NCBI GenBank assembly: GCA_030834165.1
Contig: JAURFU010000002.1
Coordinates: 1-58,608 of the forward strand
Reading direction: 5' to 3'
DNA from: Verrucomicrobiota bacterium
GTDB taxonomy: Bacteria; Verrucomicrobiota; Verrucomicrobiia; Opitutales; UBA953
Length of the DNA stretch: 58,608 nucleotides
Shown here: in pieces, positions 7,185 to 42,774 of the stretch
Layout of the letters: each line of letters begins with the position of its first letter
Position numbering within the stretch: position 1 is the stretch's first letter
Translations under genes and position numbers: made by a program
Notes under the pieces: model-generated
Database searches by the model: none
The model's input: the letters and a program-made list of their open reading frames with translations, nothing else
What the model was told of the DNA's origin: nothing

Positions 7185-9929
7185 ATGGCATGTCTGAAAA
7201 CCATCGTCCGACCCCTCGGATCCATGGCTTCCCATCTTATCCATCGCACCATGCTACTGGCCGCGCTCCTCGTCGGCGCGGCGGGCCTGCACGCGGCCGA
7301 AAGCCCGGACTACGAGACGCAGATCCGCCCTATCCTCAAGGAGCACTGCACGCACTGCCACGGCGAGGAGGAGAAGCCCAAGGGCGGCGTCGACCTCCGC
7401 CTGCGTCGGTTCATGGACGGGAAGACCGAAGACGGTTCGCCCGTGCTCACGCCCGGCGACCCGGAGAAGAGCGCCCTCTGGACGCTCGTCCGCGACGGCG
7501 AGATGCCGAAGAAGGGCAAGAAGATGCCCGAACACCAGCTGGCCCTGCTCGCCGCCTGGATCAAAGCCGGCGCGAAGATCTCCGAAGACGAACCCGCCGG
7601 CCCCCTGCCCCCGGGCGTTTACGTCTCCAAGCGTGACCGCAGTTTCTGGTCGTTCCAGCCGGTGACGAAGCCGACCCTACCCCGCTTCGCCGATCAGCCC
7701 GAGCTCGGCCCCATCGACGCGCTTGTCCGCACGAAACTTCAGGCCAAGCAACTCGACTTCGCCCCCGAGGCTGACCCTGCGACGCTCATCCGTCGCGCGA
7801 CGATCGACCTCACGGGTCTGCCGCCGACGCCTGCCGAGACCGTCGCCTTCGTCGCTGACGCCTCGCCCGACGCCTACGCCAAGCTCATCGAACGGCTGCT
7901 CGCCTCTCCGGCGTACGGCGAACGCTGGGCCCGCCACTGGCTCGACGTCGCCGGCTACGCCGACACCAACGGTTACGCCGACGCGGATTCGGTCCGCCCG
8001 TACGCCTGGCGCTACCGCGATTACGTCATCCGCTCCCTGAACGCCGACAAGCCCTGGGATCGTTTCATCCAGGAACAGCTCGCCGGCGATGAGCTGAACG
8101 CGGTCTCGGCCGCCAACGTCGCCGCGGCCGTCCTCGACCCGTCGAAGATCGATGCCCTCACGGCGACGGCCTACCTCCGCCTGGGACCCGACGGCACCGG
8201 AGATACGGTCGCCGACGTCGCCTTGGCCAAGAACCAGAGCATCGCCGATACGCTCCGCATCGTGACGACTTCGCTGACCGGCCTCACGGTCGCCTGCGCG
8301 CAGTGCCACGACCACCGCTACGACCCGATCAGCCAGGTCGACTACTTCCGCCTCCGCGCGGTCTTCGACCCGGCCCTGGATTGGCGGAAATGGCAGACCC
8401 CCGCGCAACGCACCGCTTCGCTGTACACCGCCGCCGACAAGGCCAAGGCGGCCGAGATCGAGAAGCAGGCCGCGGCCATCGACGCCGAGGCCGCCAAGAT
8501 GTACAAGGACGCCCTCGACGTGATCTTCGAGCAGAAGATCCTCGAAGTCCCCGAAGCCGAGCGCGCCGCCTACCGCGTGGCCCGCAATACGCCGGTCGCG
8601 AAGCGCACCAAGGAACAGGCGGCTCTCATCAAGAAATACTTCTCCGCGCAGGCGACCTTCGGCTTGGACCTCTATGACAAGGCGGCGGACAACAAGGTCG
8701 TGGCCAAGCGCGCCGAAGCCACCGCCCTCCGCGCGAAGAAACCCGTCGAAGGCCGCGTGAGCGTCCTCGTCGAACCCGTCAATGCGTCGCCGAAGAGCGA
8801 GCTCCACCATCGTGGCGACCACGCCCAGCCTCGCCAGGCCGTGACCCCAGGCGAACTTTCCATCCTCGGCAATCCCGTCATCCCCGTCGACGACCCGAAG
8901 CTGCCCACGACCGGCCGCCGCCTCGCCTACGCGAAGTGGCTGACCTCCGGCGATCACCCGCTCGTCGGCCGCGCCTTGATGAACCGCGTCTGGATGCACC
9001 ACTTCGGACGCGGCATCGTCAACACCCCCGGCGACTTCGGCCTGCTCGGCGAACGCCCCTCACACCCGGAACTCCTCGACTACCTGGCCGGCCGCTTCGT
9101 CGAGACCGGCTGGAGCCTCAAGGCGATGCACCGCGAGATGATGCTGAGCCGGACCTATCGTCAGTCCGCCCGCAACGACGCCGCCCAGGCGGCCGATCCG
9201 GACAACGCCCTGTTCGGACGTTACCGCATCCGCCGGCTCGACGCCGAGACCATCCGCGACGCCATGCTCGCCGTCAGCGGCAAGCTCAACCCGGAGATGT
9301 ACGGCGAACCCGTCACCGTCGGCAAGACCGGCGACGGCCGCATGATCCCCGGCGTCGAGATCCGCAACGCCAACCGCGACGTCATCAAGGTCGACACCTC
9401 CTCGCCCGCCGTCTACCGCCGTTCCGTCTATCTCCAGCAGCGTCGCAGCGGCCCCGCCACGGCGTTGGCGACGTTCGACCTGCCGAACATGGATCCGAAC
9501 TGCGAACGCCGCGACCTCACCACCGTCGCGCCGCAGTCGCTCTTCCTCATGAACGACGAGTTCGTCATCGAACGCGCCAAGGACCTCGCCGCCCGCGTGA
9601 TCAAGGAGCACCCGGCTGATGAGAACGCCCAGGTGCGCGCCGCGTGGGTCCTCACCCAAGGACGCGAGCCGTCGGCCAAGGAGCTGGCCGACTTCAATCG
9701 CCTGCTGGCCGAACAGACCGAGCACTTCGCCAAGCTCAAGCCCGCCAAACCCGTCGCGGACGCCTCCCTCAAGGTCAAACCGGTCAAGGTGAAGTCCACC
9801 TCCAAGAAAGCCGCGCCGCAACCCACCTTCCCCGCCCCCGTCGCGACCACCCAGGACGTCCGCGTCGAGGCGCTCGGTTCGCTCTGTCAGGTCCTCCTCG
9901 CCACCAACCGCTTCCTCCATGTCGACTAA
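7185..9929 (+). CDS. PSCyt1-DUF1549-DUF1553 cytochrome c protein (module 1)
   Basis: The protein has 914 residues. Its N-terminus has an export signal whose hydrophobic core is TMLLAALLVGAAGL. ATG 7185 has a weak purine-rich stretch (aagaga) upstream, and the in-frame ATGs at 7224 and 7251 are alternatives. PSCyt1 domain: about residues 45-115, with haem motif C55-TH-C58-H59. DUF1549: about 177-400, with a second CxxCH at C371-AQ-C374-H375 inside CAQCHDHRYDP. A Lys/Ala-rich, coiled-coil-like hinge spans about 405-560. DUF1553 starts near 578 (YAKWLTSGDHPLVGRALMNRVW in outline) and ends near 840. The family is known from Planctomycetota and Verrucomicrobiota and has no established reaction. 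The stop overlaps the start of the DUF1501 gene by 11 bases, so the two are almost certainly made together. Confidence 0.93.
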   Translation: MACLKTIVRPLGSMASHLIHRTMLLAALLVGAAGLHAAESPDYETQIRPILKEHCTHCHGEEEKPKGGVDLRLRRFMDGKTEDGSPVLTPGDPEKSALWTLVRDGEMPKKGKKMPEHQLALLAAWIKAGAKISEDEPAGPLPPGVYVSKRDRSFWSFQPVTKPTLPRFADQPELGPIDALVRTKLQAKQLDFAPEADPATLIRRATIDLTGLPPTPAETVAFVADASPDAYAKLIERLLASPAYGERWARHWLDVAGYADTNGYADADSVRPYAWRYRDYVIRSLNADKPWDRFIQEQLAGDELNAVSAANVAAAVLDPSKIDALTATAYLRLGPDGTGDTVADVALAKNQSIADTLRIVTTSLTGLTVACAQCHDHRYDPISQVDYFRLRAVFDPALDWRKWQTPAQRTASLYTAADKAKAAEIEKQAAAIDAEAAKMYKDALDVIFEQKILEVPEAERAAYRVARNTPVAKRTKEQAALIKKYFSAQATFGLDLYDKAADNKVVAKRAEATALRAKKPVEGRVSVLVEPVNASPKSELHHRGDHAQPRQAVTPGELSILGNPVIPVDDPKLPTTGRRLAYAKWLTSGDHPLVGRALMNRVWMHHFGRGIVNTPGDFGLLGERPSHPELLDYLAGRFVETGWSLKAMHREMMLSRTYRQSARNDAAQAADPDNALFGRYRIRRLDAETIRDAMLAVSGKLNPEMYGEPVTVGKTGDGRMIPGVEIRNANRDVIKVDTSSPAVYRRSVYLQQRRSGPATALATFDLPNMDPNCERRDLTTVAPQSLFLMNDEFVIERAKDLAARVIKEHPADENAQVRAAWVLTQGREPSAKELADFNRLLAEQTEHFAKLKPAKPVADASLKVKPVKVKSTSKKAAPQPTFPAPVATTQDVRVEALGSLCQVLLATNRFLHVD

Positions 9930-11373
9930 GCTGCCCAACGGTCTCTGCTCCCGACGCCACTTCCTCGAAGCCGGCGGCTTCGGTCTGGGCATGCTCGGCC
10001 TCGCCACGCTGCTCCGCCAGGACGGCCTGCTCGCCGCCCCGGTCAAACCGCTCCTCGGCAACGAGGTCTTCGACCTGCTCCCCAAGCAGCCGCCCCGCCC
10101 GGCCAAGGCCAAGGCGATGATCTCGCTCTTCATGATGGGCGGCCCGTCGCAGATGGATCTCTTCGACCCCAAGCCGATGCTGACGAAGTGGCACGGCCAG
10201 AAATTCCCCGGCGACATCAAATACGACAACGTCGCGCAGGCCTCGGCCAAGGTGCTGGGGTCGTTCTGGAAGTTCTCCCGTCACGGCAAGTGCGGGATGG
10301 AGCTCAGCGAACTGCTGCCGCACCTCGGCGGCGTCGCCGACGACATCTGCCTGATCCGCTCGATGAAGTCGGGCGTGAACAACCATCTCCAAGGCATGCT
10401 GGCCGTGCAGACGGGCCGCATCACCGCGGGGAACCCGACCATGGGAGCCTGGGTGACCTATGCGCTCGGCAGCGAGACCAAGGACCTGCCCGCCTACGTC
10501 GTGATGGGGCACCCTTCCGGGCTGCCCACCTTCGCGAACCAGCATTGGTCCAACGGTTGGCTGCCTTCGATCTACCAAGGCACGTTCGTCCGCGCCACCG
10601 CCCCGCACATCCTGAACCTCGATCCGCCCGCCGCCCTCCAAGGCAAGCCGCAGGAACGGCAGATGGAACTGCTCCGCGCGATGAACGCCGAGCACGCGGC
10701 CAACCATCCCGGCGAGACCGACCTCCAGGCGCGCATCCAGAGCTACGAACTCGCCGGCCGCATGCAGCTGGCCGCCAAGGAGGCGTTCGATATCTCGTCC
10801 GAGCCGAAGCACGTCCTCGAACTCTACGGCGTCGGCCGCAAGGAGTGCGACGACTACGCCCGACGCTGCCTGATCGCCCGTCGGCTCGTCGAACGCGGCG
10901 TCCGCTACGTGCAGGTCCTCAACCAAGGCCAGAGCTGGGACAACCACGGCTCCATCAAGTCAGCGCTCCCCGCCCTCTGCGCCGCCACCGACCGTCCGAG
11001 CGCGGCCCTCGTGGCCGACCTCAAGCAACGCGGCCTCCTCGACAGCACGATCGTGCACTGGGGCGGCGAGATGGGCCGCCTGCCCGTCCTCCAGAACGAC
11101 GCCGGCGAGGCCAAGTGGGGCCGTGACCACAATACCTACGGCTTCAGCCAGTGGGTGGCCGGCGGCGGCTTCAAGGGCGGCCTGACCTACGGCGAGACCG
11201 ACGAATGGGGCCACCATGCCGTCAAGGACGTGGTCAACCACTACGACTGGCACGCCACGATGCTCGACTGCTTCGGTTTCGACCACGACAAGCTCGCCTT
11301 CAAGCGCAACGGCGCCGCCCTGACCCTGACGAACAACCAGCCCGCCCGGGTGGTCCGCGAGATCCTGGCCTGA
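9919..11373 (+). CDS. DUF1501 protein, Tat-exported (module 1)
   Basis: The protein has 484 residues. A twin-arginine signal (CSRRHFLEAGGFG) is followed by a hydrophobic stretch. DUF1501 belongs to the alkaline phosphatase/sulfatase-fold superfamily. Family marks are GGPSQMDLFDPKP near residue 75, WGGEMGRLPV near 380, GRDHNTYGF, and the late motif YDWHATML with H445. These resemble the spread-out metal ligands of that superfamily. It follows the cytochrome gene with an 11-base overlap. Tat export implies that the protein folds, probably with cofactor or metal, before crossing the membrane. Substrate and reaction are unknown. Confidence 0.93.
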   Translation: MSTKLPNGLCSRRHFLEAGGFGLGMLGLATLLRQDGLLAAPVKPLLGNEVFDLLPKQPPRPAKAKAMISLFMMGGPSQMDLFDPKPMLTKWHGQKFPGDIKYDNVAQASAKVLGSFWKFSRHGKCGMELSELLPHLGGVADDICLIRSMKSGVNNHLQGMLAVQTGRITAGNPTMGAWVTYALGSETKDLPAYVVMGHPSGLPTFANQHWSNGWLPSIYQGTFVRATAPHILNLDPPAALQGKPQERQMELLRAMNAEHAANHPGETDLQARIQSYELAGRMQLAAKEAFDISSEPKHVLELYGVGRKECDDYARRCLIARRLVERGVRYVQVLNQGQSWDNHGSIKSALPALCAATDRPSAALVADLKQRGLLDSTIVHWGGEMGRLPVLQNDAGEAKWGRDHNTYGFSQWVAGGGFKGGLTYGETDEWGHHAVKDVVNHYDWHATMLDCFGFDHDKLAFKRNGAALTLTNNQPARVVREILA

Positions 11374-11387
11374 ACCGGGACCACGCG

Positions 11388-11433: not shown

Positions 11434-11439
11434 AGACCC

Positions 11440-13890
11440 GTGAAGCCGCAGATCGCCCTCCTCCTGATCGCCTCCGCCGCCGCGGCGTCGGAGCACGACT
11501 TCTTCGAGGCGAAGATCCGTCCCGTGCTGGCGGAGAAATGCTACGGCTGCCACTCCGTCGAGTCCGGCAAAGCGAAGGGCGGCCTGCTGCTGGACAGTCG
11601 CGAGGGCATCCGCACGGGCGGCGACACCGGGCCTGCGGTGGTGCCGCGTGATCCCGAAAAAAGCGTGCTCATAGGAGCCATCCGATGGCATGACCCCGAC
11701 ACCGGCATGCCTCCGAAAAACAAGGGAGGGAAGCTGCCCGCGTCCGTGATCGCGGACTTCGAGACATGGGTCCGCACCGGCGCGGCCGATCCGCGGGAAG
11801 GCGGGGCCGCCGCCAAGAAGTACGACGGCATGGCCGCCAAGGGCTGGTGGGCCTATCAGCCCATCTCGCGGCCGAAGGTGCCGGCGACGAAGAACACCGC
11901 CTGGGCCAGAACGGACATCGACCGCTTCATCCTCGCCAAACTGGAGGCCCGAGGACTCGAGCCCGTAGGCCGCGCGGACTCCGCCACGCTCGTGCGCCGC
12001 TTGTACCTCGACCTCACCGGCCTGCCGCCGGGCGACGAAGTCGTCACCGACGGATTGCTGGACCGCCTGCTCGACAGCCGCGCGTTCGCGGAACGCTGGG
12101 CGCGGCACTGGCTCGACGTGGCCCGCTACGCCGAGACGACCGGCGGCGACGTGAACGTCACCCTGCCCGAGGCCTGGCGCTATCGGGACTACGTGATCGA
12201 CTCGATCCACGCTGACAAACCCTTCGATCGGTTCATCCGTGAGCAGCTCGCCGGGGATCTGCTGCCGAGCAAGGGCGAGGCGGAACGGGCCCGAAACCTC
12301 ATCGCCACGGGATTCCTCGCCATCGGCGCGAAGTCGCTCAACGGCACCGACCCGCGCCAGTTCGCCGTGGACCTCGCGGACGAGCAGATCGACGCCGTGT
12401 CGCAGGCTTTCCTCGGCGTGACCCTCTCGTGCGCCCGCTGCCACGACCATAAGTTCGACCCCATCTCCCAGCGCGACTACACCGCGGTGGCCGGGATCTT
12501 CCTGAGCACGGACACCCGGTTCGGCACGGCCGGCGGCGTGCGTGCCCGAAACGCCTCCAGCCTCATCGAGGCGCCCGACGCCGCCGGGCTGGCCACCGTG
12601 CCGCGGAAGATGGACCCGCAGACCTGGCAGCGCAAGAGCACGCAGCTCGAGAAACTCGCCGCCCAGCGTGACCAGGCCCTCGCCTCACGCCGCCCCGGCG
12701 CCCGCAGCGGCGGCGGAGCGGAGATGACCGGCTTCGACGTGGTCCGCCTCATCACCGAGGCCAAAAAGATCGAGATGGAGATAGGCGCCTTCCGTTCGGA
12801 CGGCACCTTGAAGCCGAAGATCATGGGCGTACTGGACAAACCCCTCGCCGCGCCTGCCACCGACCGCCGCAAGCCGGGGATCGGCGGCCCGAACGCCAGC
12901 CGCCGCGCGGACAGCGGCTTCCTCGCCATCGCGGACAGCCCGCTGTTCATCCGCGGCAGCATCGAGAACGAAGCCGCCGCCGTGACGCGAGGCCTGCCGG
13001 AGATCCTCGGAGGAGGAAAGCAGCTCAGGATCCCCGCCGGCAGCAGCGGAAGGCTGCAGCTGGCGGAATGGATCGCCTCCCGGGAGAACACCCTGACCGC
13101 CCGGGTCACCGTGAACCGCGTGTGGCATTGGCTTTTCGGCAAAGGCCTCGTCGAGACCGTCGACAACTTCGGCGCCAGCGGAGCCGCCCCCACGCACCCC
13201 GAGCTGCTCGACCACCTCGCCCAGCAGTTCATCGACGACGGCTGGAGCCTCAAGAAGCTCATCAGGCGCATCGTCACCAGCAACGTGTATCAGCTCGACA
13301 CGATGCACAGCGAGCCCCGCCACCTCGCCGATCCGGACAACCGCCTGTTCTGGCGCATGAACGCCCGTCGGCTCGACGCCGAGACCATCCGCGACTGCAT
13401 GCTCGCCATCAGCGGACAGATCGACCTCACCCCGCCGCGGGGGTCCGTCATCGCCCTGGCCGGCGACGGCCCCGTCGGCGGCGAGCGCTTCCGCGTCCTC
13501 GAGGAGGAAGCGATCGAGACCGCGAATGGCCGGCATCGCAGCCTCTACCTCCCCGTCGCCCGCACCGTGCAGTCCGAGGCGCTCGCCCTCTTCGATTTCA
13601 GCGACCCCAGCATCGTCCGCGGCGCGCGCGAGACCACCATCGTGCCACCGCAGGCCCTGTACCTCATGAACAGCGCCTTCGTCAGCGAAGCGGCCGGCGC
13701 CATGGCCTCGCGCGTCATGAGTCGTCCGGGGTTCGACCAACGCTTCGACCTCGCCTGCCGCCTCGCCTTCGGACGGGCGCCGCACCCCGATGAGACCGCC
13801 GCCGCACGCCGGCTGGGCGATTCCCGCGAAAGCTGGGTCACCATCTGCCGCGCCCTGCTCTCCAGCGCCGATTTCCTGTTCATCAACTGA
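11440..13890 (+). CDS. PSCyt1-DUF1549-DUF1553 cytochrome c protein (module 2)
   Basis: The protein has 816 residues with a GTG start at 11440; no in-frame ATG gives a complete signal peptide. The short signal peptide (MKPQIALLLIASAAAA) leaves the mature protein starting near SEHDFF. First haem motif: C34-YG-C37-H38. The PSCyt1 domain ends near residue 100, after GMPPKNKGGKLP. DUF1549 runs from about 155 to 375 and carries C331-AR-C334-H335 in [11 protein letters not shown]. The hinge is short and contains a Gly/Arg-rich stretch (SRRPGARSGGGAE). DUF1553 begins near 540 and ends near 770. The DUF1501 partner follows after 14 bases. Two hairpins precede the start codon. Confidence 0.92.
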   Translation: MKPQIALLLIASAAAASEHDFFEAKIRPVLAEKCYGCHSVESGKAKGGLLLDSREGIRTGGDTGPAVVPRDPEKSVLIGAIRWHDPDTGMPPKNKGGKLPASVIADFETWVRTGAADPREGGAAAKKYDGMAAKGWWAYQPISRPKVPATKNTAWARTDIDRFILAKLEARGLEPVGRADSATLVRRLYLDLTGLPPGDEVVTDGLLDRLLDSRAFAERWARHWLDVARYAETTGGDVNVTLPEAWRYRDYVIDSIHADKPFDRFIREQLAGDLLPSKGEAERARNLIATGFLAIGAKSLNGTDPRQFAVDLADEQIDAVSQAFLGVTLSCARCHDHKFDPISQRDYTAVAGIFLSTDTRFGTAGGVRARNASSLIEAPDAAGLATVPRKMDPQTWQRKSTQLEKLAAQRDQALASRRPGARSGGGAEMTGFDVVRLITEAKKIEMEIGAFRSDGTLKPKIMGVLDKPLAAPATDRRKPGIGGPNASRRADSGFLAIADSPLFIRGSIENEAAAVTRGLPEILGGGKQLRIPAGSSGRLQLAEWIASRENTLTARVTVNRVWHWLFGKGLVETVDNFGASGAAPTHPELLDHLAQQFIDDGWSLKKLIRRIVTSNVYQLDTMHSEPRHLADPDNRLFWRMNARRLDAETIRDCMLAISGQIDLTPPRGSVIALAGDGPVGGERFRVLEEEAIETANGRHRSLYLPVARTVQSEALALFDFSDPSIVRGARETTIVPPQALYLMNSAFVSEAAGAMASRVMSRPGFDQRFDLACRLAFGRAPHPDETAAARRLGDSRESWVTICRALLSSADFLFIN

Positions 13891-13904: not shown

Positions 13905-15212
<1,308 letters not shown>

Positions 15213-15364: not shown

Positions 15365-17683
15365 ATGGTCCGCCCCGCCCTGCTGCTCGCTTTCGCGCTC
15401 GCCTGTTCTTCCCGGGCGGACGCCAAGGTATCCTTCAACCGGGAGATCCGCCCGATCCTTTCCGAGCAGTGCTTCTCGTGCCACGGTTTCGACCCCAAGC
15501 ACCGCAAGGCCGACCTCCGCCTCGACACCCGCGAAGGCGCCTTGGCCGACCACGACGGCGTCCGCGCGATCATCCCGGGGGACCCCGCGAAGTCAGAACT
15601 CTGGCAGCGACTGCTCTCCCAGGATCCGGAGGAAGTCATGCCTCCGCCCGAGGCGCATAAGCCCAAGCTGACCGCGAAGCAGCTGGCGACCCTCCGTCGT
15701 TGGATCGAGGAAGGCGCGCCTTACGAACCGCACTGGGCCTTCACCGCCCCGGTCCGCCCGACGCTCAAGGTGCAAGGTCCCGCCGCGATCGACGCCCTCA
15801 TTGACCGAGGCCTCAAGGAAGCGGGCCTGACCGCCTCGCCCGAAGCCTCGCCGGATAAGCTCCTTCGTCGCGTCTCGCTCGACCTCACCGGCCTGCCACC
15901 CACGCCGGCCGAACTCGACGCGTTCCTGAAAGCCCGCGCCAAAGACCCACAGGCGGCCTATGCCGCCGCCGTCGAACGCCTGCTTGCCTCGCCCGCCTAC
16001 GGCGAACGCTGGGGCCGCTGGTGGCTCGACCAGGCCCGCTACGCCGACAGCAACGGCTACTCGATCGACGCCCCGCGCAGCATCTGGAAATACCGCGATT
16101 GGGTCGTAGGCTCGCTCAACGCTGACCTGCCCTTCGATCGCTTCACGGTCGAGCAGCTCGCCGGCGACCTCCTGCCCGACGCCGGCGAAGCGCAGCGCGT
16201 CGCCACCGGCTTCCACCGCAACACACCCATCAACCAAGAAGGCGGCATCGACGTGGAGCAGTTCCGCATCGACAGCGTCTTCGACCGCGTGGGCACCACC
16301 GGCACCGTCTGGCTCGGCCTCACCGTCGGCTGCGCCCAGTGCCACGACCATAAGTTCGATCCGGTCACGCAGAAGGAGTTCTACCGGATGTTCGCCTTCT
16401 TCAACAACCAGGACGAACCCGCGATGAAGGTCTCGGACCCGTCCCGCGACGAAGCCAAGCTCGCCGCCGCCGCGCGCGAAGCCGACAAGGCGCTGGCCGC
16501 CTGGATGGATCAGCATCAGGCCACCGTGCAGACCTGGGAAAGCGGCCTGACCAAGGCGACCTCGGCCAAGCTTTCCGGCCCGGCCAAGGCCGCCCTGCGC
16601 AAGCCCGCCGCCAAACGGAGCGTCGCCGAGCGCGCCGCCCTCTTCGCCGCCAGCCCGGGCGGCGCGGACAAGGAATTCAAGGCCCTGCAGAAACGCGCCA
16701 AGGACGCCGCCGACCTGCGCGACGCCGCGCCGACGACGCTCGTGCTCAAGGAGCGCGTCGAGCCACGCAGGACGCACCTGCTGACCGCCGGTGACTTCAC
16801 CCGCCCCGCCGAGGAGGTCACGCCCGGCGTCCTCTCGGTGCTCCACGCCTTCAAGCCCGACCAAGGTCCGGTCAACCGCCTCGACCTCGCCCGCTGGATC
16901 GCGTCCAAGGACAACCCGCTCACCGCCCGCGTCATCGCCAACCGCGTCTGGCAGGCCTACTTCGGCCGGGGCATCGTCGAGACCGAGAACGACTTCGGCT
17001 CGCAAGGCACGCCGCCCTCCCATCCCGAACTGCTCGACTGGCTGGCGATGGAATTCGTCGAACGCGGCTGGAGCCTGAAGTCCCTCCACCGCACGATCGT
17101 GCACACGCGCGCCTATCGTCGTGACTCCGCGAACCGCTCGGACCTGACCGCCAAGGACCCGGACAACCGCCTGCTCGCCCGACAGACCCGCCTACGCCTC
17201 GACGCCGAACTTGTCCGCGACTCCGCGCTCGTCGCCGGCGGCATCCTCACGCAGAAGGTCGGCGGCCCGCCCGTCTATCCGCCCATCCCCGACGGCGTGA
17301 TGTCGCTCGGACAGGTGAAGCGCGCCTGGAACACCAGCAAGGGAGCGGACCGCACCCGCCGCGGCCTCTACACGTTCACCTACCGCGTGACCCCGCCGCC
17401 GGCTTTCGCGGTCTTCGACGCCCCGGACGGCCTCGCCTCCTGCACCCGCCGTAACCGCAGCAACACGCCCTTGCAGGCCCTGACGTTGCTCAACGATCCG
17501 GCGTTCTTCGAGGCCGCGCAGGCGCTCGCCGGCGTGATCAAGAAGGAAGGCCTCGCCGCCGCCTTCGTGCGCTGCACCTCCCGCCGGCCGGAGCCCGCCG
17601 AACTCGCCGTCCTCAGGCCGCTCGACCCCCTCTCGGCCGCGCGCGCCCTCCTCAACCTCGACGAGACCATCACCCGTGACTGA
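15365..17683 (+). CDS. PSCyt1-DUF1549-DUF1553 cytochrome c protein (module 3)
   Basis: At 772 residues this is the most compact member in the window. The signal peptide is MVRPALLLAFALACSSRADA. Haem motif 1 is C36-FS-C39-H40 in [19 protein letters not shown]. Haem motif 2 is C323-AQ-C326-H327 in [20 protein letters not shown]1549 spans about 140-360. The hinge (about 370-500) is Ala/Lys-rich and probably helical. DUF1553 starts near 506 (LDLARWIASKDNPLTARV) and runs to about 730. It is closest in motif detail to the protein at 38255, with which it shares FNREIRPILS-like and EEVMPPPE(A/S)HK segments. The DUF1501 partner begins inside its last codons (8-base overlap). Confidence 0.93.
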   Translation: MVRPALLLAFALACSSRADAKVSFNREIRPILSEQCFSCHGFDPKHRKADLRLDTREGALADHDGVRAIIPGDPAKSELWQRLLSQDPEEVMPPPEAHKPKLTAKQLATLRRWIEEGAPYEPHWAFTAPVRPTLKVQGPAAIDALIDRGLKEAGLTASPEASPDKLLRRVSLDLTGLPPTPAELDAFLKARAKDPQAAYAAAVERLLASPAYGERWGRWWLDQARYADSNGYSIDAPRSIWKYRDWVVGSLNADLPFDRFTVEQLAGDLLPDAGEAQRVATGFHRNTPINQEGGIDVEQFRIDSVFDRVGTTGTVWLGLTVGCAQCHDHKFDPVTQKEFYRMFAFFNNQDEPAMKVSDPSRDEAKLAAAAREADKALAAWMDQHQATVQTWESGLTKATSAKLSGPAKAALRKPAAKRSVAERAALFAASPGGADKEFKALQKRAKDAADLRDAAPTTLVLKERVEPRRTHLLTAGDFTRPAEEVTPGVLSVLHAFKPDQGPVNRLDLARWIASKDNPLTARVIANRVWQAYFGRGIVETENDFGSQGTPPSHPELLDWLAMEFVERGWSLKSLHRTIVHTRAYRRDSANRSDLTAKDPDNRLLARQTRLRLDAELVRDSALVAGGILTQKVGGPPVYPPIPDGVMSLGQVKRAWNTSKGADRTRRGLYTFTYRVTPPPAFAVFDAPDGLASCTRRNRSNTPLQALTLLNDPAFFEAAQALAGVIKKEGLAAAFVRCTSRRPEPAELAVLRPLDPLSAARALLNLDETITRD

Positions 17684-24894: not shown

Positions 24895-24974
24895 GCAGGA
24901 ACTTGACCGTCCGCCAGCCTGTCCCCTTAGTCTCCCTGCGTCCGCCCCAAGACTCGCCCTACCCCATTTCCCCG

Positions 24975-33961: not shown

Positions 33962-33989
33962 GCCGCGCCGACACGCCTGAGCCGTGAAG

Positions 33990-36491
33990 ATGCTTTCGGC
34001 ATTCCGTACCCCGGCGTCCCTCCGCGGCCCGCTGGCCCTGTCCGTCCTTTTCGCGGCCGCCGCCGCGCCCGCCGCCGACGCGCCCGCGAAGTCGGTCGAG
34101 CAGTTCCTGAGCCGTTACTGCCTCGAGTGCCACGACGCCGACGTCCATAAGGGCGACCGTTCCTTCCACGCGTTCAAGCTGCCGCTGAAGACGCTGCCCG
34201 ACGTCATCGAGGCGCGCGACATCATCGACCAGCTGACCCTGCGCGAGATGCCGCCGAAGAAGGCCGACCAACCCAGCGACGAGGAACGCCTCGCGGCGAT
34301 CCGCGCCTTGCGCGAAGGCACCGCAAAGGCTCAGGCAACCCTGAGCAGCACAGGCTCGCGGACGGTCCTCCGCCGCCTCTCCAACCGCGAGTATGAGAAC
34401 ACGCTGGAGACCCTCTTCGGCCGCCGCGTGGACACCCTCGGGCTGACCGCCGACTTCCCCAAGGAGAAGACCGCCCGCCACCTCGACACGATCGGCCAGT
34501 CGCTCGTGACCTCCGGCTTCCTCGTCGACCAGTACTTCCTGGCCGCCAACCGCCTCGTCGAGGCCCGGCTGGGCAAGCCGCCCACGGAGCCGAAGACCTG
34601 GCGGTTCAACAAGAACTTCGTGCAGTACGAGGAGCTGACCGGTTCGCACAAGGCCGCCTTCAATTTCCGTTACCTCAACCTCTACGAACAGCCCAACACC
34701 GATACCCGCCAGGGCGGCTACGGGCATATCGAAGACTTCAAGCAGGGCGTGCCGGTCTCCGGCCTCTACGACCTCGAGGTCGAAGCGGCGGCGATGCACC
34801 GCGACACCCACTACGACCCCGCCATCTTCGGCATCGACCTCTCCGAGCCGTTCGTCCTCGGCGTCGTGCCCGGCGACGTCACCAAGGGGCACATCCATTA
34901 CCCGCAGGCCATCGAGCCGCTGCTCGCCAGCAGCGTGGTACCGGACAACACCCCCGCCCGCCTGAAGTTCCGGGTCTGGCTGGAAGCCGGCCAGACGCCC
35001 CGCTTCATCTTCCCGAACGGCCCCTACGAGTCCCGCGCCTCGGTGATCTCGATCAACAAGCGCTATCCGAAGGAATTCTCGACGCCGGTCGGCGCCTCCT
35101 TGGTCGGCCGCTCGCACATCCTCCGGGAGGGCAAGCTCCCACATATCCGCATCAGCGAGATCGTCATCCAAGGCCCGTTGGCGGAGCCGATGGGCGGCGC
35201 CGAGGAGGTCGCGGTGTTCGGCCGCGACGGCTTCCGGGCGGACCGGGCGCTCGACCAGCTCTACGCCTTCGCCACCAAGGCCTACCGTCGCCCGCTGCAG
35301 GACTCCGACCGCGCCTCGATCCGCAAGATGTATGACAGGCGGATCGCCGAAAAAGCTCCGCCGCGCCAGGCCGCGCTCGATGCGGTCAAGCTGATCCTCT
35401 GCTCCCCCTCTTTCCTCTACCTGAGCGAAGTCACCGCCGAATCAGACCGTCGGCTCCAGCCGCACGACCTCGCCACCCGACTGGCCTACGCCCTCTGGGC
35501 GAGGTCGCCCGACGAGACCTTGGCCGCCTCGGCGGCGGCGGGCAAGCTGACCGGTGACGCGGAGCTGAAGAAGCAGATCGACCGCATGCTCGCCGACGGA
35601 CGCGTCGACGGCTTCATCAACGGCTTCCTCGACAGCTGGCTCAACCTGCGCGATCTCGGCGGCATGCCGCCGCCCCGTGAGACGAACCGGGCCTACTATG
35701 CCGAGGACCTGCCGACGTCCATGAAGACCGAAGCACGCCTCTTCTTCCGCGAGATGCTGAAAGAAGACCGTCCGGTGAACCAGTTCCTCCACGCGGACCA
35801 CACCTTCGTCGACAAGAAGCTGGCCAAGCTCTACGACCTGCCCGAGCAGAAGACGCTCCGGCTCGCCGACGGCTTCCGCAAGGTCAGCGTGCAGGGTAAC
35901 AAGCACCGCGGCGGCCTGCTGGGCATGGCGGCCGTGCTGACCGTCAGCGCCAACGGCGTCGAGACCTCCCCCGTCACCCGCGGCGCCTGGATCAGCGAGA
36001 ACATCCTCGGCGTCAAACCGCCGCCTCCTCCCGACGTCGTGCCCGCGATCGAACCCGACGTCAGCGGCACGACCACCATCCGCCAGCGTCTCTCCAAGCA
36101 CAGCACCGACCGCGCGTGCGCGGAGTGCCATCGCAAGATCGACCCCTACGGCTTCAGCCTGGAGGCCTTCGACCCGATCGGCCGCACGCGCACCACCTAC
36201 GCCAAGCCGAAGAAAGGTCCGGCGCCGAAGATCGACACCGCCGGCGAATTCGCCTCGGGCGAGACCTACCAGGATTTCGCCGGCTTCCGCGACATCCTGC
36301 ACGCCAAGCGCGACGAACAGTTCACCCGCCACCTCATCCGCCAGTTCCTCGCCTACGGCACCGGACGCCTGATGGAGCCGGCCGACGAGTTCGCGATCGA
36401 CCGCATCTACGACAAGGTGAAGCAGCAAGGCCTCGGCCTCCGCGGCCTCGTCGTCGAGTGCCTGACCAGCGAAGTCTTCCGTTCGCGCTGA
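33990..36491 (+). CDS. DUF1587/DUF1595/DUF1592/DUF1588/DUF1585 cytochrome c protein (module B)
   Basis: The protein has 833 residues from ATG 33990; a GTG 6 bases upstream is also in frame. The signal peptide is Ala-rich and ends near APAADA. Haem motif 1 is C44-LE-C47-H48. The DUF1587 start LRRLSNREYENTLETLF is near residue 127, DUF1595 near 421 (KAYRRPLQDSD), and DUF1592 near 492 (LATRLAYALWARSPDETLAASA). DUF1588 spans about 607-705 (HRGGLLGMAAVLTVSANG). Haem motif 2, C710-AE-C713-H714, lies in CAECHRKIDPYGFSLEAFDP. DUF1585 ends the protein. It has the same architecture as the protein at 24975 but a different middle region. It is 28 bases after its DUF1552 partner. Confidence 0.93.
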   Translation: MLSAFRTPASLRGPLALSVLFAAAAAPAADAPAKSVEQFLSRYCLECHDADVHKGDRSFHAFKLPLKTLPDVIEARDIIDQLTLREMPPKKADQPSDEERLAAIRALREGTAKAQATLSSTGSRTVLRRLSNREYENTLETLFGRRVDTLGLTADFPKEKTARHLDTIGQSLVTSGFLVDQYFLAANRLVEARLGKPPTEPKTWRFNKNFVQYEELTGSHKAAFNFRYLNLYEQPNTDTRQGGYGHIEDFKQGVPVSGLYDLEVEAAAMHRDTHYDPAIFGIDLSEPFVLGVVPGDVTKGHIHYPQAIEPLLASSVVPDNTPARLKFRVWLEAGQTPRFIFPNGPYESRASVISINKRYPKEFSTPVGASLVGRSHILREGKLPHIRISEIVIQGPLAEPMGGAEEVAVFGRDGFRADRALDQLYAFATKAYRRPLQDSDRASIRKMYDRRIAEKAPPRQAALDAVKLILCSPSFLYLSEVTAESDRRLQPHDLATRLAYALWARSPDETLAASAAAGKLTGDAELKKQIDRMLADGRVDGFINGFLDSWLNLRDLGGMPPPRETNRAYYAEDLPTSMKTEARLFFREMLKEDRPVNQFLHADHTFVDKKLAKLYDLPEQKTLRLADGFRKVSVQGNKHRGGLLGMAAVLTVSANGVETSPVTRGAWISENILGVKPPPPPDVVPAIEPDVSGTTTIRQRLSKHSTDRACAECHRKIDPYGFSLEAFDPIGRTRTTYAKPKKGPAPKIDTAGEFASGETYQDFAGFRDILHAKRDEQFTRHLIRQFLAYGTGRLMEPADEFAIDRIYDKVKQQGLGLRGLVVECLTSEVFRSR

Positions 36492-36542
36492 CAACCGCAG
36501 GACCCGCCTAGGCGAACCGAACGCGAGCACCCGCAGCCCTTC

Positions 36543-37295: not shown

Positions 37296-37333
37296 GCGTC
37301 AGGACAGAGGGAAAAGGTGGAACTCCCTCGGTC

Positions 37334-38251: not shown

Positions 38252-38254
38252 ACC

Positions 38255-41200
38255 ATGCGTTCCGCCCCCCTCAGCCTCCTGCTCGTCGCCACCGGCCTCG
38301 CGGCCGCCGAAGCGAAACTGGATTTCAACCGGGACATCCGCCCCATCCTTTCCGACAACTGCTTCGCCTGCCACGGCTTCGACGCCAAGAAGCGCAAGGC
38401 CGACCTGCGCCTCGACACCGCGGAAGGCGCCACGGCGGTCAATGACGGCGTCCAGGCCGTGAAGCCCGGCGACCCCGAGGCCAGCGAGCTCATCAAGCGC
38501 ATCCTCAGCAAGGATCCGGAAGAGGTCATGCCTCCGCCCGAATCGCACAAGCAGATCACCCCCGCGCAGGTCGACATGCTCCGCCGCTGGATCGCCCAGG
38601 GCGCCGTCTACCGGAAGCATTGGAGTTTCGAAGTCCCGGTCCGTCCGGAAGTCCCGGCAGCCGCGAAGGGCGTCTCGCCGATCGACGCCTTCCTCGGCGC
38701 CGAATTGGCGAAGCAAGGCCTCGCCGCCGGACCCGAGGCCGACCCGGAACGGCTGATCCGACGCGTGACCCTGGACCTCACGGGCCTCCCGCCCACGCCG
38801 GCGGAAGTCGACGCCTTCCTCCAGGACACCGCCCCGGGCGCCTATGAACGCGTCGTCGACCGCCTGCTCGGCTCGCCGCACTATGGCGAGCACATGGCCC
38901 GCGGCTGGCTCGACGCCGCCCGCTACGCCGACACCCACGGACTGCACCTCGACAACGAGCGCAGCATGTGGCCCTACCGCGACTGGGTCGTGAAGGCCTT
39001 CAACGACAACCTGCCCTTCGACCAATTCACCACCTGGCAGCTCGCCGGCGACCTGAAGCCGAACGCGACCCGCGAACAGCGCATCGCCAGCGGGTTCAAC
39101 CGTTGCAACGTCACCACCAGCGAGGGTGGCTCGATCAACGACGAGCTGCTCTTCCGCTACGCCGTCGACCGCACCGAGACCACCATGGGCGTCTGGATGG
39201 GCCTCACCGCCGGCTGCGCGGTCTGCCACGACCATAAGTTCGACCCGGTCACGACCAAGGAATTCTACTCCCTCTACTCGTTCTTCTACAGCGCCGCCGA
39301 CCCGGGCTTCGACGGCAACATCCTCCTGACGCCGCCGGTGCTGCAGCTGGCCACCCCCGAACAGGAAAAATCGCTCAAAGAATTCGATGCCCGGATCGTC
39401 GCGCACCAGAAGGCCGTCCGCGACGCCATCGCCTCGCTCAAATACGTCGATCCCGCGACGCTGACCCCGCCGCCGCCCGTGCGTACCGGTGAGACCGTCT
39501 GGTTCGAGGACGCCTTCCCCGAGAAGGCCAAGGTCGAGCGCGCCGGCAACCCCACGACCTTCGTCGAAGCGGGCCAAGGCCCCGTGCACAGCGGCCGGCG
39601 CGCCCTCAAACGCACGGCCAAAGGCGTGGCCCAAGATTACTTTACCAAGGGCGCGTCCTTCGACATCCCGCCCAACGGCGTGATCTCCGTCTGGGTGTAC
39701 CTCGAACCCACCGACCTGCCCAAGTCGATCATGCTCCAGTTCCACGTCGGCGGCTGGAACCACCGCGCGTTCTGGGGCGAAGAAGGCGCGATCCCGTTCG
39801 GACGCGTCCGCACGCCGGAGAAGGTCAACGCCGGCAAGCTGCCCGAGCCCGGCAAGTGGACCCAGCTCAAGGTCGACATCGCGAAGCTCGGCCTGAAGCC
39901 CGGCATGAAGGTCGACGGTTTCGCGTTCACGCAGTTCGACGGGACGGTCTACTGGGACCGCCTCGCGATCAGCCACCGCATCGAGGAGGCCAAGGACGTC
40001 CAGTGGTCCTTCAAGTTCTGGTCAGAGAAGAAACAGGGCTCCCGCGTGGCCGAACTTCCGGGCGACCTCCAGAACCTGGTCCGCGGGAAGAAAGCCGCGC
40101 AGTGGACCGACGCCGAACGCAAGCGCCTGCTCGATTGGTGGCTCGAGAACGAATTCCAAGGCGGCAAGGACAAGCTCGACGGCCTCCGCGCCGCCAAGCT
40201 CGCCGAAGAATCCCGCCGGAAGGCCCTCAACGACATGATCCCGGCGACGCTCGTCATGGCCGACCTGCCGCAGACGCGTCAGGCGCACGTGATGACCCGC
40301 GGCCAATATGACAAGCCGGGCGAAGCGGTGTCGCGCGGCGTGCCCGCCACCTTCCACCCGCTGCCCAAGAAGGAGACCTACGACCGGCGCGACCTCGCCG
40401 ACTGGCTGCTCTCGCCGGCCAATCCGCTGACCGCCCGCGTGACGGTCAACCGCTTCTGGCAGCAGTTCTTCGGCCTCGGCCTGGTGAAGACCAGCGGCGA
40501 CTTCGGCTCGCAGGGCGATTCGCCCAGCCATCCGGAGCTGCTCGACTGGCTCGCGGTGGAATTCCGCGAGACCGGCTGGGACATCAAGCGTCTCGTGCGC
40601 CTGCTCGTCAGCAGCGCCGCCTACCGTCGCTCCGCCGCGGCCTCGCCGGAACTGCTGACCAAAGACCCTGAGAACCGTCTCCTCGCCCGCGGCCCGCGCC
40701 ATCGCCTCGACGCCGAGGTCATCCGCGACCAGGCGCTGTTCGTCTCCGGCCTGCTCAGCCCGCGCATGGGCGGCAAGGGCGTGCGCCCCTACCAGCCCGA
40801 CAACGTCTGGGAACCGGTCGGCTTCACCGGCAGCAACACCGCCCGCTACACGCGCGATACCGGCGAGGCGCTCTACCGTCGCTCGCTCTATACGTTCTGG
40901 AAACGCACCGCGCCGCCGCCCTCGATGATCGCCTTCGACGCGCCCGCCCGCGAAGCGAGCTGCGTCCGCCGTGAGCTCAGCAACACGCCGCTCCAAGCGC
41001 TCGCGTTGCTCAACGACGTCCAGCACGTCGAAGCCGCCCGCGCTTTCGCCCAGCGGATCCTCAAGGAGGGCGGCGCCACCGACGAAACCAAGGCCGCCTT
41101 CGCCTGGCTGACGGCCGTCGGCCGTCGTCCCGCCGCGAGCGAGACCCAGGTCACCCTCGACGCCCTCCGCGCGCACCGCGCCCGTTACGCGGCCCAGCCG

Positions 41201-41329
41201 GCGGACGCGACCCAGCTGATCAACTTCGGCGAATCGAAGCCCGACGCTTCCCTGCCCGCGCCCGAAGTGGCGGCATGGACCCTCACCGCCAGCCTCCTCC
41301 TCAACCTCGACGAGACCCTCAACCGATGA
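38255..41329 (+). CDS. PSCyt1-DUF1549-DUF1553 cytochrome c protein with LamG-like insert (module 5)
   Basis: At 1024 residues this is the largest protein in the window. The signal peptide is [20 protein letters not shown]. Haem motifs are C36-FA-C39-H40 and C321-AV-C324-H325 ([11 protein letters not shown]). DUF1549 spans about 145-375. An extra domain at about 412-580 begins [16 protein letters not shown] and includes [28 protein letters not shown] and [10 protein letters not shown]. It looks like a concanavalin/LamG-type jelly roll. DUF1553 begins near 711 ([19 protein letters not shown]) and ends near 950. The insert occupies the same hinge as the discoidin-like insert in the protein at 22060. 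The DUF1501 partner starts in an ATGA overlap. Confidence 0.92.
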
Positions 41330-42774
41330 ACGACCCGCTCCAAGACCACCTGCGTCTCCTGAACCGGCGAAGTTTCCTGAGCAACGCCGGCCTCGGCGTC
41401 GGCGGCGTCGCGCTCGCCGGCCTGCTCTCCCGGGAGGCCCGGGCCGCGAACACCGTGCATAAGCCGCTCGCCGGCTACCCGCATTTCGCCCCCAAGGCCA
41501 AACGCATCATCTACCTGCACATGAACGGCGCCCCGTCGCAGCTCGACCTCTGGGACTACAAGCCGCAGCTCGAGGCCCACTTCGACAAGGACCTGCCGGA
41601 GAGCATCCGCAACGGCCAGCGCATCACCACCATGACGTCCGGTCAGGCGCGCTTCCCCGTCGCCCCGAGCCAGTTCAAGTTCGCCCAGCACGGCAAGTCC
41701 GGCCGCTGGATCAGCGAACTCCTCCCGCACACCGCCAAGGTGGTCGACATGCTCGCGGTGATGAAGTCCGTCAGCACGACCGCGATCAACCATGACCCGG
41801 CCTGCACGTTCGCGATGACGGGCAACGAGATCCCCGGCAAGCCGAGCATCGGCTCCTGGATCAGCTACGGCCTCGGCAGCGAGAGCGACGACCTCCCTTC
41901 GTTCGTGGTGCTCACGCCCAAGAGCGTCGGCGGCCAGGCGCTGTTCACGCGCATGTGGAGCAGCGGCTTCCTGCCGACGCGCCACACGGGCGTCGCGCTC
42001 CGCTCCGGCGGCGATCCGGTGCTCTACGTCCAGAACCCGCCCGGCGTGCAGCCCGGCGACCGCCGCGTCACGCTCGACGCCCTGGCGCAGCTCAACGCCG
42101 CCGGCCACCGCGAACTCGGCGACCCCGAGACGCTCACCCGCACCGCCCAGTACGAGATGGCCTTCCGCATGCAGGCCAGCGTGCCCGACCTGACCGACCT
42201 CTCCAAGGAGACCCCGGCGACCCTTGACCTCTACGGACCCGAGGTGAAGGAATCCGGCACCTTCGCCCATAGCGCCCTGCTCGCCCGCCGCATGGTCGAA
42301 CGCGGCGTCCGCGTGGTGCAGATCCTCCACCGTGGCTGGGACCAGCACGGCAACCTGCCGAAGGACATCGCGCGCCAGTGCCAGCAGACCGACCAAGCCT
42401 GCGCCGGCCTGCTGCTCGACCTCCGATCTCGCGGCATGCTGGAAGACACGCTCGTGGTCTGGGGCGGCGAGTTCGGCCGCACGGTCTACTCGCAAGGCAC
42501 GCTCACCAAGACGAACTACGGACGCGACCACCACCCGCGATGCTTCACCATGTGGATGGCCGGCGCCGGGGTGAAGCCCGGCATCTCGTACGGAGAGACC
42601 GACGACTTCAGCTACAACGTGACCAAGGACCCGGTGCACCTCAGCGAACTCAACGCCACGATCCTCCACCTCATGGGCGTCGACCACCGCCGCCTGACCT
42701 ATAAGTTCCAAGGTCTCGACCAACGCCTCACCGGCGTCGAGGAGCGCCATGTCATCAAGGGCATCCTCGCCTGA
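41326..42774 (+). CDS. DUF1501 protein, Tat-exported, with altered late motif (module 5)
   Basis: The protein has 482 residues from ATG 41326 (overlap with the cytochrome stop); an upstream in-frame ATG at 41275 falls inside the previous gene and adds no signal. The Tat signal is [19 protein letters not shown]. Family marks: [44 protein letters not shown], and SELNATIL, where Asn443 stands at the position of the His in modules 1-3. This is the last cytochrome-pair gene before the sulfatase block. A weak GC hairpin at 42799-42813 without a T tract lies in the following 66-base gap. Confidence 0.92.

What the first reader, a model, noticed from the sequence alone, without database searches (positions are those of the whole stretch)
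7185..42774. Seven repeated cytochrome plus alkaline-phosphatase-fold modules in one 36-kb tract
Five PSCyt1/DUF1549/DUF1553 proteins are each paired with a DUF1501 protein. Two DUF1592-suite proteins are each paired with a DUF1552 protein. Each of the seven cytochrome proteins has exactly two CxxCH motifs, one at the N-terminus and one in a conserved internal position. The pairing, overlap and repetition argue for two-component secreted machines that differ mainly in specificity. These families are known from Planctomycetota and Verrucomicrobiota but have no established reaction. The link to glycan degradation is inferred from the neighbouring sulfatases and esterases.
Basis: partly seen in the sequence, partly recalled or inferred. 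Interest (0 to 1): 0.75.

Follow-up and report, generated by a model that had tools for sequence, protein, structure and literature searches.

The report
Paired secreted cytochrome and sulfatase-fold proteins
A bacterium carries many copies of a two-protein secreted module, a two-haem helical protein plus a sulfatase-shaped partner that lacks the usual sulfatase motifs, and relatives without any haem motif suggest that the partnership itself, not the haem, is the old conserved core.

Summary
In detail: five PSCyt1-DUF1549-DUF1553 proteins each beside a DUF1501 protein, two DUF1592-suite proteins each beside a DUF1552 protein, exactly two CxxCH in all seven cytochromes. The tract is part of a larger set: 24 DUF1553 and 6 DUF1592 loci in the genome. 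Pairing is far above chance (21 of 24 and 6 of 6 adjacent, no cross-pairs), and partners co-evolve (within-genome r 0.81-0.93). Pairing with two unknown families and sulfatase neighbourhood are already in print (PMC5615132).

New here: (1) a haem-free DUF1549/1553-DUF1501 operon, often with a third PPC-type protein, in several phyla (80 of 80 proteins without CxxCH, 77 of 80 beside DUF1501), also in genomes without detected cytochrome-c assembly. (2) Another DUF1501 class beside DUF1800 (9 of 9 tested). (3) DUF1501 has a distant sulfatase-like fold, lacks conserved sulfatase motifs and keeps invariant His152, Asp334, His336, Arg384, His398. (4) The DUF1549/1553 model is confident without a PDB match.

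So the haem looks like an add-on that may wire an old secreted pair to respiration. Glycan oxidation is the best guess, unproven. Module number follows sulfatase number only loosely.

The parts
7185..9929 (+). PSCyt1-DUF1549-DUF1553 di-haem protein, 914 aa (CxxCH at 55 and 371)
   Evidence: Pfam; motif
9919..11373 (+). DUF1501 partner, twin-Arg N-terminus; overlaps the upstream gene by 11 bp
   Evidence: Pfam
11440..13890 (+). PSCyt1-DUF1549-DUF1553 di-haem protein, 816 aa (CxxCH 34, 331); nearest relative of both members is a pair in another genome (L079, G066)
   Evidence: Pfam
13905..15212 (+). DUF1501 partner
   Evidence: Pfam
15365..17683 (+). PSCyt1-DUF1549-DUF1553 di-haem protein, 772 aa (CxxCH 36, 323); AF2 model pLDDT 91.4, no PDB match at E<=0.001
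17676..19112 (+). DUF1501 partner; AF2 model pLDDT 89.3, distant sulfatase-like fold; family-invariant H152, D334, H336, R384, H398
19137..20522 (+). Sulfatase with the usual motifs (CSPSR at 76, DD at 35, SDNG at 260) between modules
   Evidence: Pfam; motifs
20651..22063 (+). DUF1501 partner (first gene of its pair)
   Evidence: Pfam
22060..24894 (+). PSCyt1-DUF1549-DUF1553 di-haem protein, 944 aa (CxxCH 38, 336)
   Evidence: Pfam
24903..27416 (+). PSCyt1-DUF1587-DUF1595-DUF1592-DUF1588-DUF1585 di-haem protein (CxxCH 59, 714); the TTG start is doubtful, an in-frame ATG lies 24 codons on
   Evidence: Pfam
27441..28817 (+). DUF1552 (HXXSHH) partner with twin-Arg; His102 24/24, His308, His312 and His370 6/6 conserved
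   Evidence: Pfam
32690..33961 (+). DUF1552 partner (first gene of its pair), HGLSHH at 304
   Evidence: Pfam
33984..36491 (+). DUF1592-suite di-haem protein (CxxCH 46, 712)
   Evidence: Pfam
38255..41329 (+). PSCyt1-DUF1549-DUF1553 di-haem protein, 1024 aa (CxxCH 36, 321)
   Evidence: Pfam
41275..42774 (+). DUF1501 partner; overlaps the upstream gene by 55 bp
   Evidence: Pfam
42805..43587 (+). 3-keto-disaccharide hydrolase family (PF06439) protein directly after the fifth pair
   Evidence: Pfam, E 7e-8
43641..57744 (+). Sulfatase/esterase run: sulfatase-family genes at 43641, 46254, 48045, 51159, 53046 and 54545, a BD-FAE esterase at 45070, a PF06439 protein just at cut-off at 50560
   Evidence: Pfam; sulfatase map

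Best explanation
Each module is an exported two-protein complex. One partner is an all-helical DUF1549/DUF1553 (or DUF1592-suite) protein. The other is a divergent alkaline-phosphatase-superfamily protein (DUF1501 or DUF1552) that lacks the conserved sulfatase motifs and keeps instead a His/Asp set that looks like a mononuclear metal site. The pair is old and exists without haem. In the four haem-type genomes studied, all with a haem-copper oxidase, the helical partner carries two c-type haem motifs: an N-terminal His/Met-type cytochrome (PSCyt1, CxxCH plus a conserved MPP methionine) and an internal CxxCH with no further conserved His or Met outside its own CxxCHxHK motif. Proposed mechanism: the DUF1501/1552 metal site and the internal haem work on an extracytoplasmic (oligo)saccharide or its substituent next to the sulfatases; electrons leave through the N-terminal haem to the respiratory chain; the variable insert between DUF1549 and DUF1553 sets substrate choice. 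Shown: pairing, co-evolution, haem motifs, distant fold match of DUF1501, haem-free form, link to oxidase-bearing genomes. Inferred: export, physical complex, metal binding, internal haem as an open site. Guessed: glycan oxidation as the reaction.
For: Pairing: 21/24, 6/6, 0 cross-pairs; 32 of 32 DUF1553-bearing genomes of 96 also have DUF1501; Fisher 6e-13. Co-evolution: (within-genome Mantel r 0.836, 0.811, 0.931 for 16, 18 and 14 pairs; 0 of 5000 permutations each; same nearest neighbour in both trees for 42 of 49). Haem-free form. Hosts: (haem-copper oxidase in 4 of 4 haem-type against 5 of 26 haem-free genomes, one-sided Fisher 0.0046; Cytochrom_C_asm 4 of 4 against 12 of 26, p 0.066). 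Haem state nearly clade-coherent: 3 changes on a 176-leaf tree, 200 shuffles at least 41. DUF1501 fold: (108 PDB matches at E<=1e-3; the 50 listed are sulfatases, phosphonate hydrolases, LtaS/LtaP and one unnamed AP-superfamily protein). Lost motifs: sulfatase DN aligned with E-F of EFGR; 0 of 5 window DUF1501 with CxPxR/CxAxR or S/T-D-N/H-G. Invariant residues: (58 sequences); DUF1552. Haem 1 Met and absence of other conserved His/Met: (53 sequences). Glycan link: and PF06439 beside module five. An FAD_oxidored gene beside a module of this genome (2 of 110 neighbours scanned) would suit oxidation.
Against: The haem-free operons keep the partner without haem, so the basic reaction may not be redox; five haem-free genomes do have an oxidase. 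No natural fusion of the two proteins was found. No flavin or NAD dehydrogenase appears among the Pfam hits of the 40 window ORFs scanned. Fold similarity of DUF1501 to sulfatases is distant (TM 0.23-0.39, rmsd 9-19 A in the listed 50). Metal binding rests on sequence conservation only: no model coordinates could be measured. Sulfatase number and module number are only loosely related. Of 110 neighbours of haem modules scanned, only 7 were sulfatases. The oxidase comparison rests on 4 haem-type genomes and is not corrected for kinship.
Confidence: 0.4

Rival explanations
1. Non-redox hydrolase or transferase: the DUF1501/1552 protein is a metal-dependent enzyme on glycan or lipid esters, the helical protein is its scaffold, and the haems only sense or gate (redox or oxygen switch).
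For: Haem-free pairs form a broad and coherent sister group. DUF1501 resembles sulfatases and LtaS-type transferases. DUF1800 is the neighbour of the second DUF1501 class in 9 of 9 cases tested and shows no haem domain in those Pfam scans.
Against: Both haem motifs are present in 53 of 53 full-length haem-type proteins (the N-terminal one partly by selection), and the three rich, oxidase-bearing genomes hold 19-25 scored DUF1553 matches each, which is much for a mere switch. The usual sulfatase motifs are missing.
Confidence: 0.3
2. Envelope or polymer assembly machine: the pair modifies or exports a surface polymer of the cell itself; the sulfatase neighbourhood is secondary.
For: DUF1501-DUF1800 genes travel with chitin synthase genes in proteobacteria (PMC5122149, passages read). 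[quoted passage not shown] Haem-free operons often carry a third PPC-type protein (61 of 77 loci) and no sulfatase among the 25 leading neighbour families.
Against: Haem-type modules are many and diverse within one genome, lie near sulfatases more than expected, and their neighbours include GntR, IclR and AraC-type regulators and one pectate lyase, which fits catabolism better.
Confidence: 0.2
3. No functional pair: recent tandem duplication of a two-gene unit made the repeated pattern.
For: Tandem arrangement in the window.
Against: The other four window cytochromes of this type are 35-49% identical to the 15365 protein; three of five pairs have their nearest relative, for both members, in another genome; co-occurrence holds over 32 of 32 genomes.
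Confidence: 0.02

Closest known systems
Planctomycete-specific cytochrome/domain families PSCyt1 (PF07635), PSCyt2/DUF1549 (PF07583), PSD1/DUF1553 (PF07587)
   Same: All five proteins hit all three families above cut-off; PMC5615132 (section 13 read) reports that PSCyt2 genes usually sit beside an unknown family and often near sulfatases in Verrucomicrobia
   Different: The haem-free, shorter relatives with the same DUF1501 partner did not show in the papers found by the searches (listings, and passages of those opened)
PSCyt3/DUF1588-DUF1592-DUF1587-DUF1595-DUF1585 proteins with DUF1552 (HXXSHH)
   Same: Same domain suite; a DUF1552 neighbour was seen in each of the six genomes of the survey that have DUF1592 (own genome)
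   Different: Weak profile similarity to the DUF1549/1553 core (HHalign E 6e-4, probability 29%; reversed control 0.14) hints at, but does not prove, a common fold
DUF1501-DUF1800 pair (PF07394/PF08811)
   Same: Same DUF1501 family, twin-Arg N-terminus, adjacent partner
   Different: Partner is DUF1800 without a haem domain; no significant profile similarity to DUF1549/1553 (probability 7-8%)
S1 sulfatases / alkaline-phosphatase superfamily
   Same: Fold of the DUF1501 model (Foldseek E down to 1.2e-6)
   Different: CxPxR, DD and SDNG are not conserved; EFGR and a His/Asp set instead
FoxE (PDB 5mab; di-haem iron-oxidation cytochrome of Rhodobacter, recalled)
   Same: PSCyt1 region matches both FoxE haem domains (E 4.9e-9)
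   Different: No match of the DUF1549/1553 part
Periplasmic LacABC lactose 3-dehydrogenase with PF06439 hydrolase
   Same: Precedent for periplasmic sugar oxidation feeding a PF06439 protein, as proposed in PMC9007349 (passages read)
   Different: No dehydrogenase among the window's Pfam hits

Membership tests
PSCyt1-DUF1549-DUF1553 proteins | All three Pfam domains over cut-off | tested here: met
   5 of 5
PSCyt1-DUF1549-DUF1553 proteins | CxxCH in PSCyt1 and in PSCyt2 | tested here: met
   5 of 5; haem attachment itself not testable here
DUF1592 suite | DUF1587, 1595, 1592, 1588, 1585 in order | tested here: met
   2 of 2
DUF1501 (PF07394) | Full-length profile match | tested here: met
   5 of 5, E 1.5e-135 to 3.6e-150
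DUF1552 (PF07586) | Full-length profile match incl. HXXSHH | tested here: met
   2 of 2; HQLSHH at 308 and HGLSHH at 304
Alkaline-phosphatase superfamily | Fold | tested here: met
   DUF1501: (108 matches E<=1e-3, but TM 0.23-0.39). DUF1552 only through DUF1501, HHalign probability 97.8% over 107 columns
S1 sulfatase | Formylglycine motif CxPxR/CxAxR and DD, DN/DH metal ligands | tested here: not met
   0 of 5 window DUF1501 have C-x-[PA]-x-R or [ST]-D-[NH]-G; of 58 family members 2 and 8 have such strings, outside conserved columns. E-F stands where sulfatases carry D-N. First strand ends in GG, not DD (by position of the strand)
c-type cytochrome | Covalent haem | not testable with these tools
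   Motif only; the genome has cytochrome-c assembly proteins
Two-component complex | Physical contact | not testable with these tools
   Adjacency and co-evolution only

The most novel reading that the evidence does not exclude
A new class of secreted oxidative glycan-processing enzyme: a sulfatase-fold protein that traded its hydrolytic centre for a three-His/one-Asp metal site, docked on a new all-helical fold whose internal c-haem has no distal ligand of its own and faces the partner's metal site. The haem-free, DUF1800 and DUF1592 versions would be variants of one ancient machine in which the haem was added (or lost) with access to a respiratory chain.
Probability: 0.18. Interest if true: 0.85.

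Novelty: new variant of a known kind. Interest (0 to 1): 0.52.

Why it matters
These families have been catalogued in Planctomycetes since the early genomes (41 copies each of DUF1549 and DUF1553 in R. baltica, passage of PMC2754498), and the papers found here give them no reaction. The haem-free sister operon gives a minimal version of the machine that can be expressed without cytochrome maturation, and so separates the role of the partner from that of the haem. The lost sulfatase motifs of DUF1501 warn against annotating it as a phosphatase or sulfatase. If the oxidative reading is right, it would be an unrecognised route of polysaccharide breakdown in sulfatase-rich bacteria.

Tried and rejected
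Recent tandem duplication: rejected, the other four window cytochromes are 35-49% identical to the 15365 protein and three of five pairs have their nearest relative in another genome. Unifying DUF1549/1553, DUF1592 and DUF1800 by profile comparison: suggestive only (HHalign E 6e-4 to 5e-3, reversed controls 0.14-0.84; probabilities 7-29%), not claimed. Natural fusions of partners: none in the ORFs searched. PSCyt1 supplied by a separate gene beside the haem-free operons: 0 of 80 loci (control 63 ORFs); 5 of the 80 loci do hold some ORF over 200 aa with a CxxCH. Simple scaling with sulfatases: weak. In the multi-genome searches only a capped number of candidates per genome is scored (25 for DUF1553, 17 for DUF1501, 21 for sulfatase), so large counts are lower bounds; for sulfatases the first-look candidate number was used. 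NCBIfam: no match for nine proteins. First hhalign run used a global setting and was replaced. Co-evolution runs held wrong partner assignments, corrected. A strict twin-Arg pattern found fewer hits than the alignment (42 of 54 haem-locus and 25 of 65 haem-free-locus DUF1501, against R12 invariant in 58 aligned), so Tat export of the haem-free class is uncertain. No signal-peptide predictor was run.
Full report
What is there. Pfam scans of the window proteins confirm the reading: five PSCyt1-DUF1549-DUF1553 proteins, each beside a DUF1501 protein, and two DUF1592-suite proteins, each beside a DUF1552 protein. All seven cytochromes hold exactly two CxxCH and the seven partners none. The internal CxxCH lies in PSCyt2 (DUF1549) or PSCyt3 (DUF1588), so its position is part of the known families. 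Partner order is reversed in two of the seven pairs (20651/22060 and 32690/33984). The run continues downstream into sulfatases, esterases and PF06439 proteins.

It is one part of a genome-wide set. The window lies on a 128-kb contig of a 2.25-Mb, 81%-complete genome. That genome has 23 DUF1501, 24 DUF1553, 6 DUF1592 and 6 DUF1552 loci (counted for after merging two split matches and dropping six short DUF1501 rows below the cut-off). 21 of 24 DUF1553 lie within 2.5 kb of a DUF1501 and 6 of 6 DUF1592 within 2.5 kb of a DUF1552; there is no cross-pair. Of the three remaining DUF1553, one sits at a contig end (C33:182), one lies beside another DUF1553 (C150:17753), and one (C76:5670) is separated from its DUF1501 only by a third gene, described below.

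Co-occurrence between genomes. In 96 genomes of the phylum (own genome included), 32 have DUF1553 and all 32 have DUF1501; 18 have DUF1501 alone. In that second DUF1501 class (about 100-125 bits in the cases tested) 9 of 9 tested neighbours are DUF1800 (nine of the 20 loci). DUF1592 occurs in 6 of 96 genomes, 26 loci; in the short flanks held, 19 of 26 show a DUF1552 and none a DUF1501. One of the seven misses is the window's own 33984 gene, whose DUF1552 lies outside the flank.

Co-evolution. Among 49 haem-type pairs (profile score at least 300) of four genomes, 16 in the window's genome, 18 in G066, 14 in G086 and one in G060, partner trees agree: Mantel r 0.836, 0.811 and 0.931 within the first three genomes, 0 of 5000 permutations each; 42 of 49 have the same nearest neighbour in both trees. 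Eight proteins without a full adjacent partner in the fetched stretch were left out; five of these had a truncated partner beside them. Three of the five window pairs have their nearest relative, for both members, in another genome. The modules look like old, separately inherited units and not fresh tandem copies.

The haem-free form. In the phylum survey, 26 genomes carry a short DUF1549/1553 protein with no CxxCH at all; in 24 of the 26 a DUF1501 lies in the locus held, and in two (L019, L020) the DUF1501 is on another contig, while the third-gene family described next lies beside them. Pfam recognises both domains in the three that were scanned. Long and short forms align over 480 columns (HHalign E 1.6e-57); where the long form has [11 protein letters not shown] the short form has another sequence (compared by eye). 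A scan of species genomes with this form gave at least 557 relatives, of which the best 80 were kept: record titles name Planctomycetota, Verrucomicrobiota, Acidobacteria, Armatimonadetes, Hydrogenedentota, Riflebacteria and others. In those, 80 of 80 proteins lack CxxCH and 77 of 80 have DUF1501 within 600 bases on the same strand. No PSCyt1-like ORF lies in the stretch held round them (0 of 80; control); 5 of 80 loci hold some other ORF over 200 aa with a CxxCH. In 61 of the 77 a third protein of about 750 aa of a PPC-bearing family follows (in 7 of the 16 misses the contig ends early). One locus of the window's own genome (C76, L061) combines both worlds: DUF1501, a member of the third family, and a PSCyt1-bearing DUF1549/1553 protein with two CxxCH.

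Haem and respiration. Haem state changes only three times on a 176-leaf tree of the core, against 41 or more in 200 shuffles of the labels (FastTree, midpoint root; some genes occur twice through overlapping loci and some ORFs are cut by locus ends). The four genomes with haem-type proteins all have a haem-copper oxidase; of the 26 haem-free genomes 5 do (one-sided Fisher 0.0046). All four have a Cytochrom_C_asm protein; 14 of the 26 do not (one Pfam family only). G035, counted as haem-free and oxidase-bearing, is mixed: a second copy there shows a CxxCH in a cut ORF. Two further DUF1553 genomes (G049, G084) were not classified. Kinship is not corrected for.

The proteins. The AF2 model of the 15365 protein is confident (pLDDT 91.4, pTM 0.89) and mostly helical; Foldseek finds no PDB match at E<=1e-3, best 1.9. 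The N-terminal haem domain resembles FoxE. In 53 haem-type proteins the conserved His and Met shared with the reference are H40 and M92 (first haem, MPP motif), H327 and H329 (second CxxCHxH); no other His or Met reaches 90%, while K330 (52/53) and Y669 (51/53) do. That the second haem is open is an inference from this. The DUF1592 proteins likewise keep an N-terminal CxxCH (21 of 23) with MPP (24 of 26) and an internal CxxCH (26 of 26), plus a His six residues before it (23 of 25).

DUF1501. The AF2 model (pLDDT 89.3, pTM 0.88) matches sulfatases, phosphonate hydrolases and LtaS-type enzymes (108 matches at E<=1e-3; TM 0.23-0.39 and rmsd 9-19 A in the 50 listed, so distant). Profile comparison aligns the sulfatase DN metal motif with E-F of a conserved EFGR (probability 89.5%). 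Seven of eight sulfatase-family ORFs of the window have CxPxR or SDNG, while 0 of 5 window DUF1501 have either; among 58 family members 2 have a C-x-[PA]-x-R and 8 an [ST]-D-[NH]-G string somewhere, not in conserved columns. Over these 58, of all three partner classes, the invariant residues are R12, G65, H152, G172, D334, H336, R384, G395, H398. DUF1552 is a relative (HHalign 97.8%, 107 columns): its HXXSHH falls on the D334-x-H336 segment (Ser311 on D334) and His370 on H398 (printed). Of its histidines, 102 is kept in 24 of 24, 308, 312 and 370 in 6 of 6 and 313 in 5 of 6 sequences. A metal site of His152, Asp334, His336 and His398 is proposed; that these four meet in space could not be measured. 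Correspondence with particular alkaline phosphatase ligands is recalled knowledge and was not tested.

Glycan link. In this genome 24 of 56 sulfatases lie within 10 kb of a module (16.5% of the sequence; expected 9.2; binomial 3e-6) and 12 of 56 within 5 kb (expected 6.8; p 0.035); clustering is not corrected, and two of the 58 matches were merged or dropped as fragments. Among 110 of 158 module neighbours in the three rich genomes, sulfatases are the commonest enzyme family (7), with GntR, IclR and AraC-type regulators, two FAD_oxidored proteins and one pectate lyase (ORFs were picked by length, so some may not be genes). Two of nine unusual proteins scanned carry a Laminin_G_3 domain, one of them between DUF1549 and DUF1553. 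Against it, sulfatase number and module number are loosely related over 96 genomes (Spearman 0.35), and the haem-free operons show no sulfatase among the 25 leading families of 98 of 238 neighbours scanned; one exception was seen by coordinates, G020, with a sulfatase 1.6 kb from its haem-free gene.

What is known. PMC5615132 (section 13 read) states that PSCyt2 and PSCyt3 genes usually sit beside two different unknown families, often near sulfatases, and that nothing is known of their function; the main text does not name the families, but the listings count DUF1501 and DUF1552 in the paper. PMC2754498 (passages) gives 41 copies of each domain in R. baltica. PMC5122149 (passages) describes DUF1501-DUF1800 genes with chitin synthases. 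PMC4452313 (passage) refers to an earlier study of DUF1501 clusters, not held. Searches of the open-licence library listed no paper that I could recognise as describing a haem-free DUF1549/1553 pair or a reaction of these families; only some of the listed papers were opened, by passages, and most subscription papers are not in that library.

Verdict. A real, strongly paired and known uncharacterised system; the haem-free sister operon, the lost sulfatase motifs and the model without a PDB match are the new points. The reaction remains a guess.

Noticed in passing
window 28814-30100 and 30112-31395: Two adjacent proteins without any Pfam match begin with nearly the same sequence after the signal region, so they look like a tandem duplicate; a leucine-rich-repeat protein follows at 31416-32513.
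   Followed up: no
window 1032-3380: One protein combines EF-hand, AhpC/TSA, cytochrome (CBB3-type, just below cut-off) and a weak copper type II monooxygenase C-terminal match, after a peroxidase-family gene at 97-1197.
   Followed up: no
window 4905-5495 (-): Sigma-70-type (ECF-like) factor gene next to a weakly DUF1349-like gene, just upstream of the first module.
   Followed up: no
window 46254-47747: Sulfatase-family protein without a CxPxR or SDNG motif among otherwise motif-bearing sulfatases.
   Followed up: partly
L061:5580-12246 (own genome, contig C76): Operon with DUF1501, a third-family (PPC-type) protein and a two-CxxCH DUF1549/1553 protein: a link between haem-free three-gene operons and haem modules.
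   Followed up: partly
own genome C33:12962-14217: A DUF1501 gene is split in two frames, with one TGA inside the second match: pseudogene or assembly error.
   Followed up: no
L128-L207: RidA-family (L-PSP) genes occur among neighbours of haem-free operons (10 of 98 scanned).
   Followed up: no
L048:5569-7407, L049:4683-6509, L064:4671-6818, L073:5930-8251, L077:6474-8615: DUF1549/1553 proteins with only the internal CxxCH (no PSCyt1 in the three that were Pfam-scanned): possible intermediates between haem and haem-free forms.
   Followed up: partly
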